A DNA stretch of 64,000 nucleotides from Coleofasciculus sp. FACHB-T130. GTDB taxonomy: Bacteria > Cyanobacteriota > Cyanobacteriia > Cyanobacteriales > FACHB-T130. A program made the translations under genes and the position numbers. Numbering within the stretch: the first letter of the stretch is position 1; each line of letters starts with the position of its first letter. The notes under the pieces are model-generated. The model was not told the origin of the DNA and made no database searches. It worked only from the letters and a program-made list of their open reading frames with translations. Of the stretch, positions 37,067 to 43,324 are shown piece by piece. The stretch spans positions 62,001 through 126,000 of the forward strand of contig NZ_JACJOG010000035.1 of assembly GCF_014695375.1 (NCBI RefSeq), in the 5' to 3' direction.

Positions 37067-39529
37067 TCAGTCTTCTTCAGCTTCGAGCCAGCTTTGAATT
37101 GTTTCACTGGAAATACCTGCAAGCGAGTGATTCAATATTGCTTTCAGTGTTTCCATACCACCTAGTTTTATTACTCTGAGCAGCTTACCTTTGAGGGTAG
37201 AATTCTGCTGAATTTCCTGAGATAGAAGCAACAGTCGGTCATCTGCGCTCTGAGCAGAGTATTCCTCAGACAGTTGATTCAGTAATAATTTAATCTCTGC
37301 TGTTGCTTCAATTATGAATATCTCTTTGTCTGTGAGACGGAGAACTCTTTGGAGTTTTTTTAACTCTTTGCGGCTAGATTTATTGAATAGGGATTCATAC
37401 TTTATTGATTCATTAAACGCTTCGGAATACTCCCAAAGTTTTCGTCTATTATCTTCATAAGGTTTTAGAATTTCCCGTTCAATCTCGTTAGCTTCTTCAG
37501 GCCGCAATTCTAGCTGATTACGCATTACGTTCAGAATTCTGCGACCAATTGGAGAGATAGTTCCATCACTAACAAAACTTTTAACTTCTTGACGGTAGCT
37601 GCTCTTAGAATTTTCCAGAGCAGCTTCTAATTGTGGTATAAATTGCTTCCTAATTTTCCTAACATCTTCTTCTTTAAGTCTTAATGTTGCCTGTAAATTA
37701 TCTAATAAAGTGCGAGTAGATGACGATAGCGAATTTTCTTGGTGAGTTAATTTTAGTAAAAAGTCTCGGTATTCTTCTAGATTTCGTTGGTATTGTGTCC
37801 AAGCATTAATTTGTGCTTCAATTACTACTTTCTGTTCATCGTTGAGTTTTACTACGTTATATAAATGTTGTATAAAGGAAATATCATTTATTTTAGAGAC
37901 ATACTTAGGGCGTAGCTCTTCAACTAAAAGCCGCAAAGACTGATTATTTTGAAGGAGTAATGACTGAGCGAATTGCTCTCTTGCCAACTCAAACTTTCCT
38001 TGCAGTATTAAGTTTTTTGCATATACTAATAGAGACTGTAAAAATCCCTCTTTAGTACGTATCGGGTCAACTTTGTAAGCTCGCTTGAAAAGTTCCACAG
38101 CCTTGTCAAACTCCTGGACATCTAAGTATGCCTCTGCCAAATCGAATAAAGCGCTAAAGTGGTTAGGATTGGCTGTTAAAACTTGCTTATAGAGTTTGAT
38201 GGCATTTAGTGTGTCACCTCGCTGACGCATTAGAGGTGCTAGTTTGTAGAGGCGATGAGCTTCTGGGTCAAGGTTCTCTAGTTCAAATATTTCTCGTCGT
38301 AGGGAGTACCGCTTTACTAACCAACGACGAACCAATTCAACTGTTACTTTGTAAGTATTAAGTTTCAGCGGTAGCGGATTTCCGGCAAGCCCTAAGTGTT
38401 GTAAAAAATTCCATTCGAGCAATTGCTCCTCTGCTTTACGCAATGGTTCTGTTAAGATAACCCCAAACTGCTTTAACAGATTTAAGGCTTCTCCTTCAAC
38501 AACACCAACTTCTAAAGTTCCTCCAAACTGCTTTAACAGGTTTAAAGCTTCTCCTTCAACAACACCACCTTCTGGAGTTCCATCTTTTGTAGAACTGGCA
38601 ACATGCTCCTGCTGAGCTTCTGCTACTGCTGAGAAAAACACCCGCTCAGGAATAGGCAACCCATCCCGAAACCATGCCAGTCCACCTTCACCAATTTCAA
38701 TCGCCTTGTTTACAATGCTCTCTACATCTGCTCGAGTCACCTGCCAACGCTGTTCCTCCCTGGCATTTGCGAAAAGAGCAAAGCAAATTACTTGCGTAAA
38801 ATAAGGATGCCCGGCTGAGAGTTCTAAAATTGCATCGATCACCTCAGAGTTGTATTCCAGCACATCCTTAGCAGGTTCGATAATTAGCCGTTCTGCACCG
38901 CGCCTGTCTAGCAGACTAATTTCCTGCCTGGGTGCTTCCCTAAACAAACCCAGTAGAGTTGGCATATCGGTCAGTCGCCGTCCTACAACTGGGATGATAA
39001 ACAGTTCCGGTTGCTGATAAACGATGGATTGTAAATAGGGGAAAAAGTGATTAGCCGCTGTATCGGGGTTACAGTCGCCTAAAACATCGAATTCATCCAA
39101 CAGAAGTACAAGATTCTTACCGCCGAGAACCTGATAAATTTGGGGCAAGAAATCATCAGCAAAGACCTGTGACTGTTTTTCCAGTTCGGATTTTGTAGGC
39201 AGAGTTGCCTTGTCTTTGGGCAATCCTAGGTGATCGATAATGTCTCTAGCAAGTTCGTGTAGAACTTCACTCAGTGGTTTCTGGCTTTTACCTTCAAGTG
39301 AAAGGGAAACAAAGACGAACTTTTCTAGATGGACAAAGTTAGGAATTTGGCACAGTACAGATGACTTACCAATGCGGCGCTGACCATGTAAGAGAATGAC
39401 TTTAGCGCTTTTGTTGAGATTGTCTTGAATAAACTGGAAAAGCTCCTCCCGCCCAAAGAAGTATTCTGGTTCGTAGATTGGGCGACCAATAATATAAGGA
39501 TTCTCCTTCCAATCTTCTGAAGTAGCCAT
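37067..39529 (-). CDS. STAND/AAA-type ATPase with TPR and helical repeat C-terminus
   Basis: An 820-residue signalling ATPase. N-terminal NTPase: PYIIGRPIYEPEYFFGRE, Walker A GQRRIGKSS with Lys55, Walker B LVLLLDEFDVLG, and the GHPYFTQVICF segment of the family. A winged-helix part (residues 280-410) contains a 20-residue tandem duplication (VVEGEALNLLKQFG twice). TPR-like helices follow (residues 435-510, with ANPNHFSALFDLAEAYLDVQEFDKA). Residues 590-760 hold three copies of a roughly 30-residue helical unit ending in L.L...E...IE, as seen in cyanobacterial kinases and STAND proteins. STAND proteins act as switches in stress or conflict responses. A second, broken ATPase gene lies just upstream on the same strand. 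Confidence 0.87.
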   Translation of the reverse strand: MATSEDWKENPYIIGRPIYEPEYFFGREELFQFIQDNLNKSAKVILLHGQRRIGKSSVLCQIPNFVHLEKFVFVSLSLEGKSQKPLSEVLHELARDIIDHLGLPKDKATLPTKSELEKQSQVFADDFLPQIYQVLGGKNLVLLLDEFDVLGDCNPDTAANHFFPYLQSIVYQQPELFIIPVVGRRLTDMPTLLGLFREAPRQEISLLDRRGAERLIIEPAKDVLEYNSEVIDAILELSAGHPYFTQVICFALFANAREEQRWQVTRADVESIVNKAIEIGEGGLAWFRDGLPIPERVFFSAVAEAQQEHVASSTKDGTPEGGVVEGEALNLLKQFGGTLEVGVVEGEALNLLKQFGVILTEPLRKAEEQLLEWNFLQHLGLAGNPLPLKLNTYKVTVELVRRWLVKRYSLRREIFELENLDPEAHRLYKLAPLMRQRGDTLNAIKLYKQVLTANPNHFSALFDLAEAYLDVQEFDKAVELFKRAYKVDPIRTKEGFLQSLLVYAKNLILQGKFELAREQFAQSLLLQNNQSLRLLVEELRPKYVSKINDISFIQHLYNVVKLNDEQKVVIEAQINAWTQYQRNLEEYRDFLLKLTHQENSLSSSTRTLLDNLQATLRLKEEDVRKIRKQFIPQLEAALENSKSSYRQEVKSFVSDGTISPIGRRILNVMRNQLELRPEEANEIEREILKPYEDNRRKLWEYSEAFNESIKYESLFNKSSRKELKKLQRVLRLTDKEIFIIEATAEIKLLLNQLSEEYSAQSADDRLLLLSQEIQQNSTLKGKLLRVIKLGGMETLKAILNHSLAGISSETIQSWLEAEED
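38461..38580 (-). repeat. Two-copy 60-bp tandem duplication inside the STAND gene
   Basis: 38461-38520 and 38521-38580 are about 90% identical. The 60-base unit keeps the frame and encodes EGEALNLLKQFG-containing 20-residue blocks, so the gene remains open. Confidence 0.9.
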
Positions 39530-39653: not shown

Positions 39654-40924
39654 TCAAGAAGTAGCCTTTAAAGTACCCACTATCCATTCAATCAATGACT
39701 TGGCTGCTTCTCTAGACTGCCATACTTGTTGGATCACCTTTTTAACTCGCTGTGCTTGCTCACGGCTCATCAGCTTAAGAAACACCTTCTCTCGGTTCTG
39801 AAGTTCTACGTTATCGCTGTTCTCAATTTCCCGAATCACCCACCACTCCATCATAGAAGAAGCAAAAGAATAGACCTTTTTTTCTTGCTGTACGGTGTGC
39901 TTAACCATCCCTCTCTCTTCTAGATCAATCAGCTCTCGACTCCGCTGGCTGAGAATTAAGTCAATATCAACCAGAGCGTACTGTTCTTTTCTATTTAAAC
40001 GACCTTCCAAAGGGCATAGAGCAATCAGCATCAAAAGGAGTTGTTCTACCTCAGTTGACCACTTCCATGCATTATGGAAGAACTGCTCACTCCGGCTTTG
40101 AAAATCCCTTGTAAATGCCTCAAGGTCTGGTGTTTGTTAGCAGCAAGAGTGTCATACAACAAATATCCTGCAATTTGAAGCAGAGCAGGATGTCCACCAG
40201 TAATCTCTAAAACCCCTTTTCTTAGAGTGGGTGTAATAGGCAGGACAAACAGAGAATTAATCTCGTTGTTAGAAAATGGTCTAAGTGGTAGAAAGAGATA
40301 GTGGTTGTACCACGGAGAGCCGCCTGGAGGAAGTTTAGGCCCCAGTTCATTTAAACGCCGGAATGACATCACAATAGTTGACAGGTATCGACCTTCCTGA
40401 CTGTGAACTGCCAAATCCCGAAACTCGCTTAAGAAGGTTAGCATCTCCGCTTCTGTGTACTGATCGTTGGGATAGAGAGCCACATCATAGTCGTCTAGCA
40501 ACAGTAACAAGAATTGGTTCTGCTGCCCAATTTGCCGCAATACCCGACGTAAATCTCCCTTATCTACTGTTTCCTTTTGCAACAACTGCTCAATAGCAGT
40601 CTGTAAGGAGCCATTATCCTCTGCCTGCTCTTTCAATAGGCTAAGTACCTCTCTCCAAAAGAAAGAAGGCTTAAAAGGATAGATCCCGGAACAGTTGAGA
40701 TAAACAATAAATGCTTTTGATGGCTTAAGTCCTTGCATCTGCCAAGCTTGAGGCGAAGCTAAATACTGTAATAGAGAGGACTTGCCAATGCCTGTGCTGC
40801 CATAAAACGCCGCGTGACCACACTTGGAAATCTGATCAAATGCAATTTTGACTTCAGAGGTGCGTCCTATAAAGGATTCTAAAGGAACGCGACCTCCAAC
40901 AAAAAAAGGGTTTTGCGATACCAT
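39654..40924 (-). pseudogene. Second STAND/AAA ATPase, broken by a one-base frameshift
   Basis: The N-terminal ORF (40924 down to 40046) has FFVGGRVPLESFIGRTSEV, Walker A GSTGIGKSS with Lys48 and Walker B LLLLLDDYD, up to GHPALLQIAGYLLYDTL. It then runs into nonsense. In the neighbouring frame the text continues sensibly: TPDLEAFTRDFQSR and QFFHNAWKWSTEVEQLLL, joining directly to LIALCPLEGRLNRKEQYAL and a winged-helix end at 39654. The break is at about 40129-40140 (TGTTTGTTAG on the plus strand), where one added base would restore a protein of about 423 residues. No X-XXY-YYZ slip site is present, so this is a mutation or a sequencing error rather than programmed frameshifting. Confidence 0.8.
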
Positions 40925-41042: not shown

Positions 41043-41330
41043 ATGCCCTCGACTATTCATCCTGTACTTGCTTATAACGAGAGTTTAATCCCAGGCACCT
41101 CTTTGTCGGATAGAGTTGAGCTAGCGAAGCGGGAAAACCTGGCGTTAGAAGTAGCTAACACGGGGAATTTTCCAGTTGAACTGTATCGGCAATATCAAGT
41201 TAGCACTGTGCAAGCTTACGCGATGCATGAGTTTCATCCACTGCACTGCGATCGCTACCAACTTCAAGAAGCTTTGGCGTCCAAGCAACTGCTTCACCGA
41301 CTCGCGCTTGGCTTAACCCACCGAAACTGA
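41043..41330 (+). pseudogene. Truncated sugar-phosphate isomerase/epimerase remnant
   Basis: From ATG 41043 the frame reads HPVLAYNESLIPGTSLSDRVELAKRENL, LEVANTGNFPVELY and VQAYAMHEFHPLH, which resembles the first strands of xylose-isomerase-like TIM-barrel enzymes. It stops after about 95 residues, far short of the usual 270-300, and its tail runs into the 3' end of the convergent CpcT/CpeT-like gene. The rest of the barrel is missing. It is therefore probably a remnant left by deletion or insertion of the neighbouring gene. Confidence 0.5.
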
Positions 41331-41974
41331 TAAGGTTCGCCTTTTGAACCCCAAACTTGATTACCAGCGGCATCAAAAGCCCGATCTAATGTGTCCATTC
41401 CAGTAGAATTCAACACAATTCGATTTGTTACTTTTACTGCGCCTTTGTAGTCGCTGGAACAACCTGCCTTCGGCGTCTCGCCGATGTAATTCTCACCGTC
41501 AGGTTTTAAAAATACGCTGCATTTAGCAGCACCAATATCGGTTAATTTGATGACACGCTTTGCTTCTGGTTTGCTACATAGACCAATCAAAGCTTCTGGT
41601 GTTGGTGGTTTAAATGATTGCGATTCTATGCTTTGGTTATCAGCACTGGGGGCAATTTTTAGGAATCTCTGCCGATAGGGTTTGGCAAGATTCTGGGACA
41701 TCGCTTGTTCTTGGTAGAGGAAAACTACCTTGGGATTTTTTTTAGTATTTTCTATGCTGACTTTGCAGGTAGTCATTCTCACATTTGGGGTTTTGGGATT
41801 GGCTTGCGCTTGTGCAGACGTGTCCATTACTCCGACTAAATGCGACACTACTTCCCCAACTTGTTGCTGCATTGGTATCGATTGGATATTCGTTGCTGGA
41901 CGCGAATAAGCCGCTGTGCCAGTTGAGGAGACAAGGGCGATCGCGATCAAACTCCGAGTTCTTGTATTCTTCAC
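41294..41974 (-). CDS. CpcT/CpeT-family protein with a signal peptide
   Basis: A 226-residue protein. From about residue 60 it follows the CpcT/CpeT chromophore-lyase family: VVFLYQEQAMSQNLAKPYRQRFLKI, a Cys followed by VFLKPDGENYIGETPKAGC, and the C-terminal VWGSKGEPYQFRWV. Lyases of this family attach phycobilin to phycobiliprotein cysteines in the cytoplasm. This one instead begins with KNTRTRSLIAIALVSSTGTAAYS, which looks like an export signal, so it may act outside the cytoplasm and not be a normal lyase. No phycobilisome genes are nearby. The family call is moderate to strong; the function is open. Confidence 0.72.
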   Translation of the reverse strand: MKNTRTRSLIAIALVSSTGTAAYSRPATNIQSIPMQQQVGEVVSHLVGVMDTSAQAQANPKTPNVRMTTCKVSIENTKKNPKVVFLYQEQAMSQNLAKPYRQRFLKIAPSADNQSIESQSFKPPTPEALIGLCSKPEAKRVIKLTDIGAAKCSVFLKPDGENYIGETPKAGCSSDYKGAVKVTNRIVLNSTGMDTLDRAFDAAGNQVWGSKGEPYQFRWVKPSASR

Positions 41975-41989
41975 AATAGTCTCCCAGTG

Positions 41990-42406
41990 CTAATCAAAAA
42001 CATAACGTTCGGCAACGCGCCAGTAGCGAGAAAAGCGTTTAAGGTCAATATATCCGTCGTATTTTACAAATGGCTCAACAGATAACACTTCGATAGGAAG
42101 CGATTCCTCAATTTTGTCGCAAATGTGGTCAAATCGCGGGCTAGGACTCTCTGCTGTAACGACTCCATCAGCATTGTGTTCCTTGGCAAAAGCGATAACT
42201 TCAGCAGCGACATCACCGCGTCGAATCGTTACTGGCAGTTCTAGCAAACACTCATAAATAAAAGTAATCCGCTTGAGACTCAGCTGCCACTCTTCAATCA
42301 AAGCATCGTCCCAAACCCATATCGCGGGGCTTTCAGGGTATGCTTGCAATGCGGGATTTCCAAGACTTAAACAGTCTCCATGCATCCAAATAATCGGCTG
42401 TTTCAT
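41990..42406 (-). CDS. Photolyase/cryptochrome N-terminal alpha/beta domain as a separate ORF
   Basis: A 138-residue protein from ATG 42406 (KQPIIWMHGDCLSLGNPALQAY). The pattern WVWDDALIEEWQLSLKRITFIYECLLELP and VIAFAKEHNADGVV is that of the antenna-binding Rossmann-like domain which normally forms residues 1-130 of a DNA photolyase. Here it stands alone, downstream of the gene for the FAD domain, reversing the normal order. A GTG at 42451 would extend it by 15 residues encoded by a 15-base tandem repeat; that extended frame is continuous with the FAD gene apart from its TAG stop. Probably works as a complex with the FAD half. Confidence 0.75.
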   Translation of the reverse strand: MKQPIIWMHGDCLSLGNPALQAYPESPAIWVWDDALIEEWQLSLKRITFIYECLLELPVTIRRGDVAAEVIAFAKEHNADGVVTAESPSPRFDHICDKIEESLPIEVLSVEPFVKYDGYIDLKRFSRYWRVAERYVFD

Positions 42407-42421
42407 TAATTCAAGGCTCAC

Positions 42422-42451
42422 GCACTCAAAACTCGCGCACTCAAAACTCAC
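42422..42451 (-). repeat. 15-bp tandem repeat between the two photolyase ORFs
   Basis: GCACTCAAAACTCGC (42422-42436) is followed directly by GCACTCAAAACTCAC (42437-42451). Read on the minus strand it codes for repeated SFECA/V and joins the FAD-domain frame to the alpha/beta-domain frame. Confidence 0.8.
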
Positions 42452-42454
42452 GCA

Positions 42455-43324
42455 CTACCGACGCTTCTTCCCGCGCTGAAAACTCTTGCTACCGCCACTT
42501 CGATCGAAGCTTTGAGCTTTAGGAAACAATCGCTTCTCTAGTTCATCGTAGCTGCCCTCGAAGTCACAATGACCGTACAGGGGGCATTGGCGGCAATAGA
42601 CGCCATCCGTATAGCGTTCTAAGTTCTCCCGGTTAAAGAAATAAGGCTTTTGGCTAAAGGTGCTGGCAACCCACTGCCAGGAGAGATTATTGCTGGCTGG
42701 ATCGCCATCCAGTAAGTGTTGCAGAAACCATCTTGCCCCGACTTGCCAACGAATCCGCCGCCAGTGAACTAGGTAAGCGGCTAGCCACATTCGCCCGTGG
42801 TTGTGCAGGTAGCCAGAGGAGTGCAAGTCGCGGCTAAAACTGTCAATACAGACCATGCCGGTGCTACTTTTGTCAACATCTTCCGGTAACTTTTCGGCAT
42901 AGTCTTTGGCTGTGTAGCCTGTCTTGTAAGGCTCTTGATCTTCCCAAATGTCGTTTCCCAGCTTGGCATAGAGACGCTGCCAGTAATCGCGCCAGCCGAG
43001 TTCGTTGATGAGTTTTTGTGCGTCATCTCGGTTTTCCACTTTGTCCAGCACAGCATCCCGCACTTCTGCCAAGCTCAAGACGCCGTAGCGGAGATAGGGT
43101 GAAAGGCGCGTGACTGCGCCACTAAAAGAATTGCGCGTTTTGGCGTAACGGGCGGGATCTACTTGACTTAAGAAGGCTTCTGCGGCTTTACGTCCTCCTA
43201 CGGTGGTAGCGATCGCGTCATCGCGTTCGGTGACGGTAGGGAATTGTTCGCGGAGATAGGTAATTAAATCGTCGCGGCTGGCAAAATCTCGCCGCATATC
43301 TCGATTATTTGGCGTGGCGTTCAT
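42455..43324 (-). CDS. Photolyase-like FAD-binding domain protein with four-cysteine cluster
   Basis: A 289-residue protein equal to the C-terminal, FAD-binding half of a DNA photolyase: TRLSPYLRYGVLSLAEV, ELGWRDYWQRLYA, SSGYLHNHGRMWLAAYLVHW and LLDGDPASNNLSWQWVAS are the flavin-pocket segments. Four cysteines stand out: Cys159 (GMVCIDSF, 13 residues before GYLHNH) and Cys244, Cys247, Cys253 (YCRQCPLYGHCDFEG). This arrangement resembles the 4Fe-4S site of FeS-BCP photolyases. The C-terminal tail is basic (SKSFQRGKKRR). The alpha/beta domain is encoded downstream in the same frame after one TAG codon. DNA repair with light is the likely role, not proven. Confidence 0.85.
   Translation of the reverse strand: MNATPNNRDMRRDFASRDDLITYLREQFPTVTERDDAIATTVGGRKAAEAFLSQVDPARYAKTRNSFSGAVTRLSPYLRYGVLSLAEVRDAVLDKVENRDDAQKLINELGWRDYWQRLYAKLGNDIWEDQEPYKTGYTAKDYAEKLPEDVDKSSTGMVCIDSFSRDLHSSGYLHNHGRMWLAAYLVHWRRIRWQVGARWFLQHLLDGDPASNNLSWQWVASTFSQKPYFFNRENLERYTDGVYCRQCPLYGHCDFEGSYDELEKRLFPKAQSFDRSGGSKSFQRGKKRR

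What the first reader, a model, noticed from the sequence alone, without database searches (positions are those of the whole stretch)
41990..43324. Photolyase split and circularly permuted: FAD domain first, alpha/beta domain after, joined by a single in-frame TAG
In normal photolyases and cryptochromes the alpha/beta domain is N-terminal and the FAD domain C-terminal in one chain. Here the FAD domain (289 residues) is encoded first; its TAG stop (42455-42457) is followed in the same frame by TGC, GTG and an open frame through a short SFEC repeat linker into a complete alpha/beta domain ending at 41990. Two readings are possible: two subunits made from one mRNA, or some readthrough giving a permuted fusion. 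Either would be an unusual photolyase architecture.
Basis: partly seen in the sequence, partly recalled or inferred. Interest (0 to 1): 0.75.

Follow-up and report, generated by a model that had tools for sequence, protein, structure and literature searches.

The report
Two-gene photolyase with reversed domain order
A light-driven DNA-repair enzyme is made here as two separate proteins, one carrying the flavin and probably an iron-sulfur cluster and the other the light-antenna fold; the arrangement was already published for marine Synechococcus, and here it proves to be a faithful two-part partnership in many cyanobacteria and a single fused protein in some Deinococcus.

Summary
In detail: a FAD-domain ORF (43324-42455, minus strand) ends in TAG and is followed in frame by an alpha/beta-domain ORF ending at 41990. 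Both are photolyase domains by profile and predicted fold. Read-through is not supported. In 56 relatives with the pair adjacent, gaps run from -4 to +469 nt, with all frames and all three stops; 13 overlap by 4 nt. Of 291 sampled Cyanobacteriia genomes, 64 have both genes, none the FAD gene alone, one the alpha/beta gene alone, 226 neither; in 16 of the 64 the genes are unlinked. Best reading: two proteins forming one heterodimeric photolyase. This is phr4/phr5, published in 2022 for marine Synechococcus (PMC9426592), so the window pair is a new member of a known kind. Added here: pairing kept even when unlinked; FAD-then-alpha/beta single-chain fusions on three Deinococcus plasmids; class-I (CPD-type) active-site residues, against the published (6-4) inference; one sampled family without the four cysteines (8 of 8 genomes); and an alpha/beta partner beside the 'short photolyase-like' gene of Synechococcus elongatus or a sister species.

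The parts
42455..43324 (-). phr4-type gene: FAD (catalytic) domain of photolyase, 289 aa plus TAG stop
   Evidence: PF03441 E 2.1e-23; predicted fold matches photolyases, e.g. 1iqr Z 13.8; 80 kept cyanobacterial loci with relatives at 69-86% identity
42455..42457 (-). TAG stop between the two ORFs; not conserved (TAA 26, TGA 19, TAG 11 in 56 relatives with the pair adjacent)
42407..42454 (-). 48-nt intergenic spacer, open and in frame
   Evidence: spacer of the nearest relative is 21 nt
42417..42456 (-). 2.7 copies of a 15-bp tandem repeat that reads as the SFEC 'linker'
   Evidence: Tandem Repeats Finder
41990..42406 (-). phr5-type gene: alpha/beta (antenna-type) domain of photolyase, 138 aa plus stop; most likely start ATG 42406
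   Evidence: PF00875 E 4.8e-5, under cut-off; fold Z 12.8 to 3zxs; start position from relatives
42848..42850 (-). codon of Cys159, first of four cysteines expected to hold the Fe-S cluster
   Evidence: invariant in 81 of 81 aligned; 16 residues before Asn175, as Cys350 is before His366 in PhrB (residue numbers from passages of PMC4619345)
42593..42595 (-). codon of Cys244 (expected Fe-S ligand)
42584..42586 (-). codon of Cys247 (expected Fe-S ligand)
42566..42568 (-). codon of Cys253 (expected Fe-S ligand)

Best explanation
The two ORFs are phr4 and phr5, a two-gene photolyase. Phr4 is a catalytic subunit with FAD, a probable [4Fe-4S] cluster and a class-I, CPD-type active site. Phr5 is a separate alpha/beta subunit, probably carrying or shaping the antenna-chromophore site. 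They are translated as two proteins from neighbouring genes (here with a 48-nt repeat spacer, in 13 of 56 adjacent relatives, by title mostly Nostoc and other Nostocales, with a 4-nt stop/start overlap) and associate in trans into a complex equivalent to one ordinary photolyase. Shown here: domain identities, conservation, co-occurrence even when unlinked, no conserved read-through or frameshift arrangement, natural FAD-then-alpha/beta fusions, conserved cofactor and active-site residues. Inferred: physical association, antenna role, Fe-S occupancy, and the lesion repaired (CPD more likely than (6-4)).
For: Domains. One CDS with both domains on 3 Deinococcus plasmids; two genes overlapping by 4 nt on a fourth. 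FAD and alpha/beta distances correlate at r 0.94 over 42 pairs. Joint model of the read-through chain: pTM 0.78, which suggests but does not prove docking. Class-I residues kept in 91 phr4-type rows: W111, N175, W218 in 91, E108 in 89, M179 in 86; in PhrB the H366N change abolishes (6-4) repair (PMC4619345 passages). Published: disruption of phr4 lowered UV-C survival of Synechococcus RS9916 (PMC9426592 passages).
Against: In the published E. [quoted passage not shown] The authors infer (6-4) repair from the cysteines and the UV-C effect. A recombinant short photolyase-like protein is reported to repair CPDs without an alpha/beta partner (Xu 2021; abstract recalled, paper not held), so Phr5 may not be needed for catalysis. 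The ORF2 Pfam score is under the curated cut-off, and universal stress proteins follow photolyases closely in the fold list (Z 10.0 at rank 25). No interaction data. G074 has the alpha/beta gene alone. The Fisher test ignores shared ancestry, as does the distance correlation.
Confidence: 0.85

Rival explanations
1. Read-through (or frameshift) makes a single FAD-alpha/beta chain: the reader's second reading, and akin to the +1 frameshift idea published for marine Synechococcus.
For: In-frame single stop here and in L001; 8 of 43 non-overlapping relatives have an in-frame single stop against about 3.8 expected; natural fusions exist in G255 and Deinococcus; the picocyanobacterial junction is reported as fixed (PMC9426592).
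Against: Of those 8, six stops are TAA, and some are close relatives; gaps run from -4 to 469 nt in all frames; 16 of 64 genomes have the genes unlinked; the spacer differs in length and repeat content even from the closest relative.
Confidence: 0.05
2. Phr5 is not a structural partner but an independent, functionally linked protein (for example a chromophore carrier or a regulator) that is needed in the same light-repair context.
For: Weak similarity to PF00875; Usp-family hits in 9 of 32 members and universal stress protein folds not far down the structure lists; one genome has Phr5 alone (G074); unlinked genes in 16 genomes.
Against: Best fold matches are photolyase alpha/beta domains; fused to the FAD domain in members of two phyla.
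Confidence: 0.08
3. A decaying conventional photolyase gene, broken and rearranged.
For: Two ORFs joined by a single stop look like a broken gene at first sight.
Against: Reversed domain order; dN/dS of about 0.1-0.2 in both ORFs; conserved pair across the class; a conventional photolyase exists elsewhere in the genome.
Confidence: 0.01

Closest known systems
Phr4/Phr5 (and fused Phr6) of marine Synechococcus and Cyanobium, PMC9426592 (2022; abstract and passages seen)
   Same: FAD-domain gene followed by photolyase-domain gene, four cysteines with the same spacing (C169, C254, C257, C263 there; C159, C244, C247, C253 here), fused form in two Cyanobium; Nostoc punctiforme said to have the same gene set.
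   Different: There a fixed 7-bp junction, a proposed +1 frameshift and a predicted (6-4) activity; here an in-frame TAG, a variable spacer across the class, frequent unlinking, and class-I active-site residues.
Short photolyase-like proteins (SPL; Xu 2021, recalled and via passages of PMC9178010 and PMC9649867)
   Same: Short FAD-domain photolyase, some with four cysteines and a Fe-S cluster, similar to class I/III; S. elongatus SePhrC was filed as an SPL.
   Different: SPLs are described as lacking the alpha/beta domain and proposed as ancestors; here the alpha/beta domain is present as a second gene, also beside the FAD gene of G031 (S. elongatus or a sister species).
NewPHL / Phr7 single-strand CPD photolyases
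   Same: FAD domain first in the chain; nearest FAD relatives of Phr4 in the published tree (PMC9426592); called an inverted domain topology in a passage of PMC13274461.
   Different: Carry a C-terminal Z-domain in one chain (PMC9426592). In five plasmid proteins that I take for this type or near it the alpha/beta profile found nothing, four of five lack Cys159 and none has Cys244, 247 or 253.
FeS-BCP (6-4) photolyases such as PhrB
   Same: Four Fe-S cysteines, the first one 16 residues before the lesion-site residue.
   Different: Conventional order in one chain; His366 where Phr4 has Asn175 (correspondence taken from spacing and from the paper's H366N exchange, not from an alignment with PhrB).
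Class I CPD photolyases
   Same: Active-site Glu, Trp, Asn, Met, Trp conserved.
   Different: Alpha/beta domain N-terminal in the same chain; no cysteines at the four places in the seven class I rows.

Membership tests
Phr4/Phr5 pair (PMC9426592) | FAD-domain gene with a neighbouring separate alpha/beta photolyase-domain gene, FAD gene first | tested here: met
Phr4/Phr5 pair (PMC9426592) | Four cysteines with the spacing 85, 3, 6 | tested here: met
   C159, C244, C247, C253 against C169, C254, C257, C263 in the paper
Phr4/Phr5 pair (PMC9426592) | 7-bp junction with a change of frame (reported for the picocyanobacteria studied; I do not take it as defining) | tested here: not met
   In-frame TAG and 48-nt spacer here
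Phr4/Phr5 pair (PMC9426592) | Protection against UV | not testable with these tools
   needs a mutant
SPL class | FAD domain without an N-terminal alpha/beta domain in the same chain | tested here: met
SPL class | No alpha/beta domain partner at all (the sense in which the class is offered as a one-domain ancestor) | tested here: not met
   Phr5 gene adjacent; also in G031, whose class I photolyase is 481 of 484 identical to the Anacystis (S. elongatus) structure 1owl
FeS-BCP (6-4) photolyase | Lesion-site His (His366 of PhrB) | tested here: not met
   Asn in 91 of 91 phr4-type rows at the place of A. nidulans N349; need for His from PMC4619345; no direct alignment with PhrB was made
CPD-type (class I) active site | E283, W286, N349, M353, W392 of A. 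nidulans photolyase (roles recalled) | tested here: met
   E108, W111, N175, M179, W218
Photolyase alpha/beta domain (ORF2) | PF00875 above the curated cut-off | tested here: not met
   23.8 bits against 26.6; 25 of 32 members of the alignment hit at E 0.01 or better
Photolyase alpha/beta domain (ORF2) | Fold best matched by photolyase alpha/beta domains | tested here: met
Programmed read-through | Stop and frame conserved among relatives | tested here: not met

The most novel reading that the evidence does not exclude
The Fe-S 'short photolyase-like' enzymes of cyanobacteria are not one-domain photolyases but obligate two-subunit enzymes whose antenna domain is supplied in trans. If this holds, they cannot serve as simple one-domain ancestors of the photolyase family, and the reversed fusions in Cyanobium-like G255 and in Deinococcus arose independently by joining neighbouring genes. 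The Fe-S cluster also does not mark (6-4) specificity, since the active site is CPD-type and one cyanobacterial family keeps the pair without the cysteines.
Probability: 0.55. Interest if true: 0.62.

Novelty: new member of a known kind. Interest (0 to 1): 0.45.

Why it matters
A photolyase whose catalytic and antenna domains are separate proteins allows a direct test of what the antenna domain does, by adding or removing a whole subunit. The near-perfect co-occurrence of the two genes, kept even when they lie far apart, questions the published view that short photolyases work without an alpha/beta domain and are the family's ancestor, and the active-site residues question the published prediction of (6-4) repair.

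Tried and rejected
Read-through and frameshift as the general mechanism: rejected on gap, frame and stop variation and on unlinked pairs. The mild excess of in-frame single-stop cases (8 against 3.8 expected of 43) is reported; some of the eight are close relatives. Operon with the neighbours: among the 80 loci the CpeT-family gene downstream and the SLH gene upstream are found only in L001, so I take them as incidental. Promoter and terminator scans gave no more than shuffles. Viral copies of the alpha/beta protein: none confirmed in viral contigs, none in phages. The alpha/beta profile found nothing in five NewPHL-like plasmid proteins (E 1e-3). Docking of the two domains in the usual photolyase way could not be measured: no coordinates are given out, and the structure search of the joint model was filled by the FAD domain. 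Trees have long branches, so the placing of Deinococcus QL22 and of family f35 is left open. In the tree I left out seven loci: duplicates (L082, L083, L114, L117, L120) and two further rows (L115, L119); L112 and L122 did not pass the FAD profile and were not in it. A motif count missed the fused G255 because its cysteines are spaced wider; residue-by-residue checks replaced it.

Full report
OBSERVATION. On the minus strand ORF1 runs from ATG 43324 to a TAG at 42457-42455 (289 aa), and the same frame stays open to the next stop at 41992-41990. ORF1 is a FAD_binding_7 protein (E 2.1e-23). ORF2 hits DNA_photolyase at E 4.8e-5, slightly under the curated cut-off. Relatives place the start of ORF2 at ATG 42406. 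The 48 nt between are a spacer with 2.7 copies of a 15-bp repeat. The nearest relative, Trichocoleus sp. FACHB-40 (L001), also has TAG and an in-frame spacer, but of 21 nt.

DOMAINS. An AlphaFold2 model of ORF2 alone (46 sequences, mean pLDDT 80, pTM 0.74) matches photolyase and cryptochrome alpha/beta domains best: Rhodobacter CryB Z 12.8, rmsd 2.2 over 110 residues; Thermus photolyase Z 12.4. The first named universal stress protein stands at rank 25 with Z 10.0, so the margin is real but modest. Foldseek ranks class II photolyases first. A profile comparison with class I N-terminal domains gives 91% and E 1e-6. The joint read-through chain gave mean pLDDT 74 and pTM 0.78; its FAD half matches photolyases, including PhrB (5kcm, Z 13.4, 245 residues, 3.4 A). 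The pTM suggests that the two domains pack, but I could not examine the interface.

PARTNERSHIP. A scan of genome contigs found 329 stretches with ORF1 relatives and kept the best 80, all cyanobacterial by title, at 69-86% identity. Among these 80 the alpha/beta gene lies directly downstream in 56, 4.1 kb away in one, and was not found in the fetched DNA of 23, of which three contigs end within 600 nt. In the 56 adjacent pairs the stop is TAA 26, TGA 19, TAG 11; gaps run from -4 to 469 nt with median 81; 13 have a 4-nt overlap; frames 0, 1 and 2 occur 21, 14 and 21 times. In an even draw of 291 Cyanobacteriia genomes the alpha/beta profile (E 1e-10) hits 65 and the FAD profile (E 1e-60) hits 64; the 64 are all among the 65; 226 have neither. 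The exception, G074 (98% complete, 250 contigs), has the alpha/beta gene with no FAD-type gene beside it and no phr4-type match in the genome. Of the 64 pairs 46 lie within 1 kb, 2 within 1-5 kb and 16 are unlinked: 10 on one contig from 88 kb to 4.9 Mb apart, 6 on different contigs; for these six the FAD gene has at least 5 kb of contig downstream without the alpha/beta gene. Fisher's test gives 3e-64, but relatives are not independent. Both genes are also absent together in a family of which other sampled members have both (G289 in f6). Unlinked yet present together in each sampled case means that the two proteins can act in trans.

FUSIONS. G255 encodes both domains in one 582-codon open frame, like the published phr6. 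On three Deinococcus plasmids one CDS holds the FAD domain followed by the alpha/beta domain (D. psychrotolerans, sp. AJ005, D. wulumuqiensis), and on a fourth (sp. QL22) two genes overlap by 4 nt. In the FAD tree G255 groups with a split pair of its own family (G146, 99/93) and the Deinococcus trio forms its own group (100/100), so the fusions look independent, though the trees have long branches. FAD and alpha/beta distances correlate at 0.94 over 42 pairs; shared species history explains part of this.

COFACTORS AND LESION. Four cysteines (159, 244, 247, 253) are invariant in 81 of 81 aligned sequences, in 4 of 4 Deinococcus and in the fused G255. Their spacing equals that of Synechococcus Phr4, and C159 sits 16 residues before N175, as C350 sits before H366 in PhrB (numbers). 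The eight genomes of one family (f35) keep the pair but lack all four cysteines, 8 of 8. The lesion-site residues follow class I enzymes: E108, W111, N175, M179, W218, present in 89, 91, 91, 86 and 91 of 91 rows. Some FAD-site residues named for the Anacystis enzyme differ, for example T240 to V71 and W280 to L105. PhrB loses (6-4) repair when His366 becomes Asn (PMC4619345, abstract and passages), and the place that I take as equivalent is Asn in 91 of 91 here. I therefore expect CPD repair rather than the (6-4) repair predicted in PMC9426592. This rests on residues alone, and the published UV-B and light/dark results (next paragraph) do not favour it.

LITERATURE. PMC9426592 (abstract and passages seen; its supplements not seen) describes phr4/phr5 in marine Synechococcus and Cyanobium, the fused phr6, the four cysteines, the reversed order and a possible +1 frameshift, and says Nostoc punctiforme has the same gene set. 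Its experiments: disruption of phr4 lowered survival after UV-C but not after UV-B, and phr4/phr5 protected E. coli against UV-C, not significantly differently in light and dark. PMC9178010 (passages) files S. elongatus SePhrC as an SPL. In G031, whose class I photolyase is 481 of 484 identical to PDB 1owl, the phr4 and phr5 genes are 3 nt apart. Whether Table S2 of PMC9426592 already lists this I could not see. Listings for circularly permuted, reversed, split or inverted photolyases showed no other paper on this pair (one search listed 20 of 49); a passage of PMC13274461 speaks of an inverted domain topology of NewPHL/SPL proteins. A listing on Deinococcus photolyases (15 of 16 shown) led to one paper that I looked into, on D. 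gobiensis, in whose passages I saw no such fusion. The held library is open-access only.

VERDICT. A real, conserved, two-protein photolyase, orthologous to published phr4/phr5. The in-frame TAG is most likely a local accident. The new content lies in the comparative evidence, which bears on how short photolyases work and on their place at the root of the family.

Noticed in passing
window 41294-41974 (-): CpeT/CpcT-family gene (PF06206, E 4e-52) starts 15 nt after the end of phr5; the same neighbour was found only in L001 among 80 loci.
   Followed up: partly
window 40046-40924 and 37067-39529 (-): Probable ATPase genes near the pair; the first hits NACHT and AAA families, the second was not scanned and only looks by eye like an AAA protein with repeats.
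   Followed up: no
L090 3660-4091 (-) (genome G074): phr5-type gene without a detected phr4 in a 98% complete draft genome; either an assembly gap or loss of the catalytic gene.
   Followed up: partly
L095, L097, L132-L137 (eight genomes of family f35): phr4/phr5 pair without any of the four cysteines, with a much diverged phr5 (E about 1e-18 to 1e-23).
   Followed up: partly
L124 2216-3556 and 3543-5021 (Persicobacter plasmid): The open frame of a short-photolyase-like protein overlaps that of a second photolyase-like protein, a possible two-photolyase operon; no annotation in the record.
   Followed up: no
spacers between phr4 and phr5 in several loci (e.g. L012, L016, L023, L040): The intergenic spacers often consist of short tandem repeats of about seven bases, different between lineages (seen by eye).
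   Followed up: no
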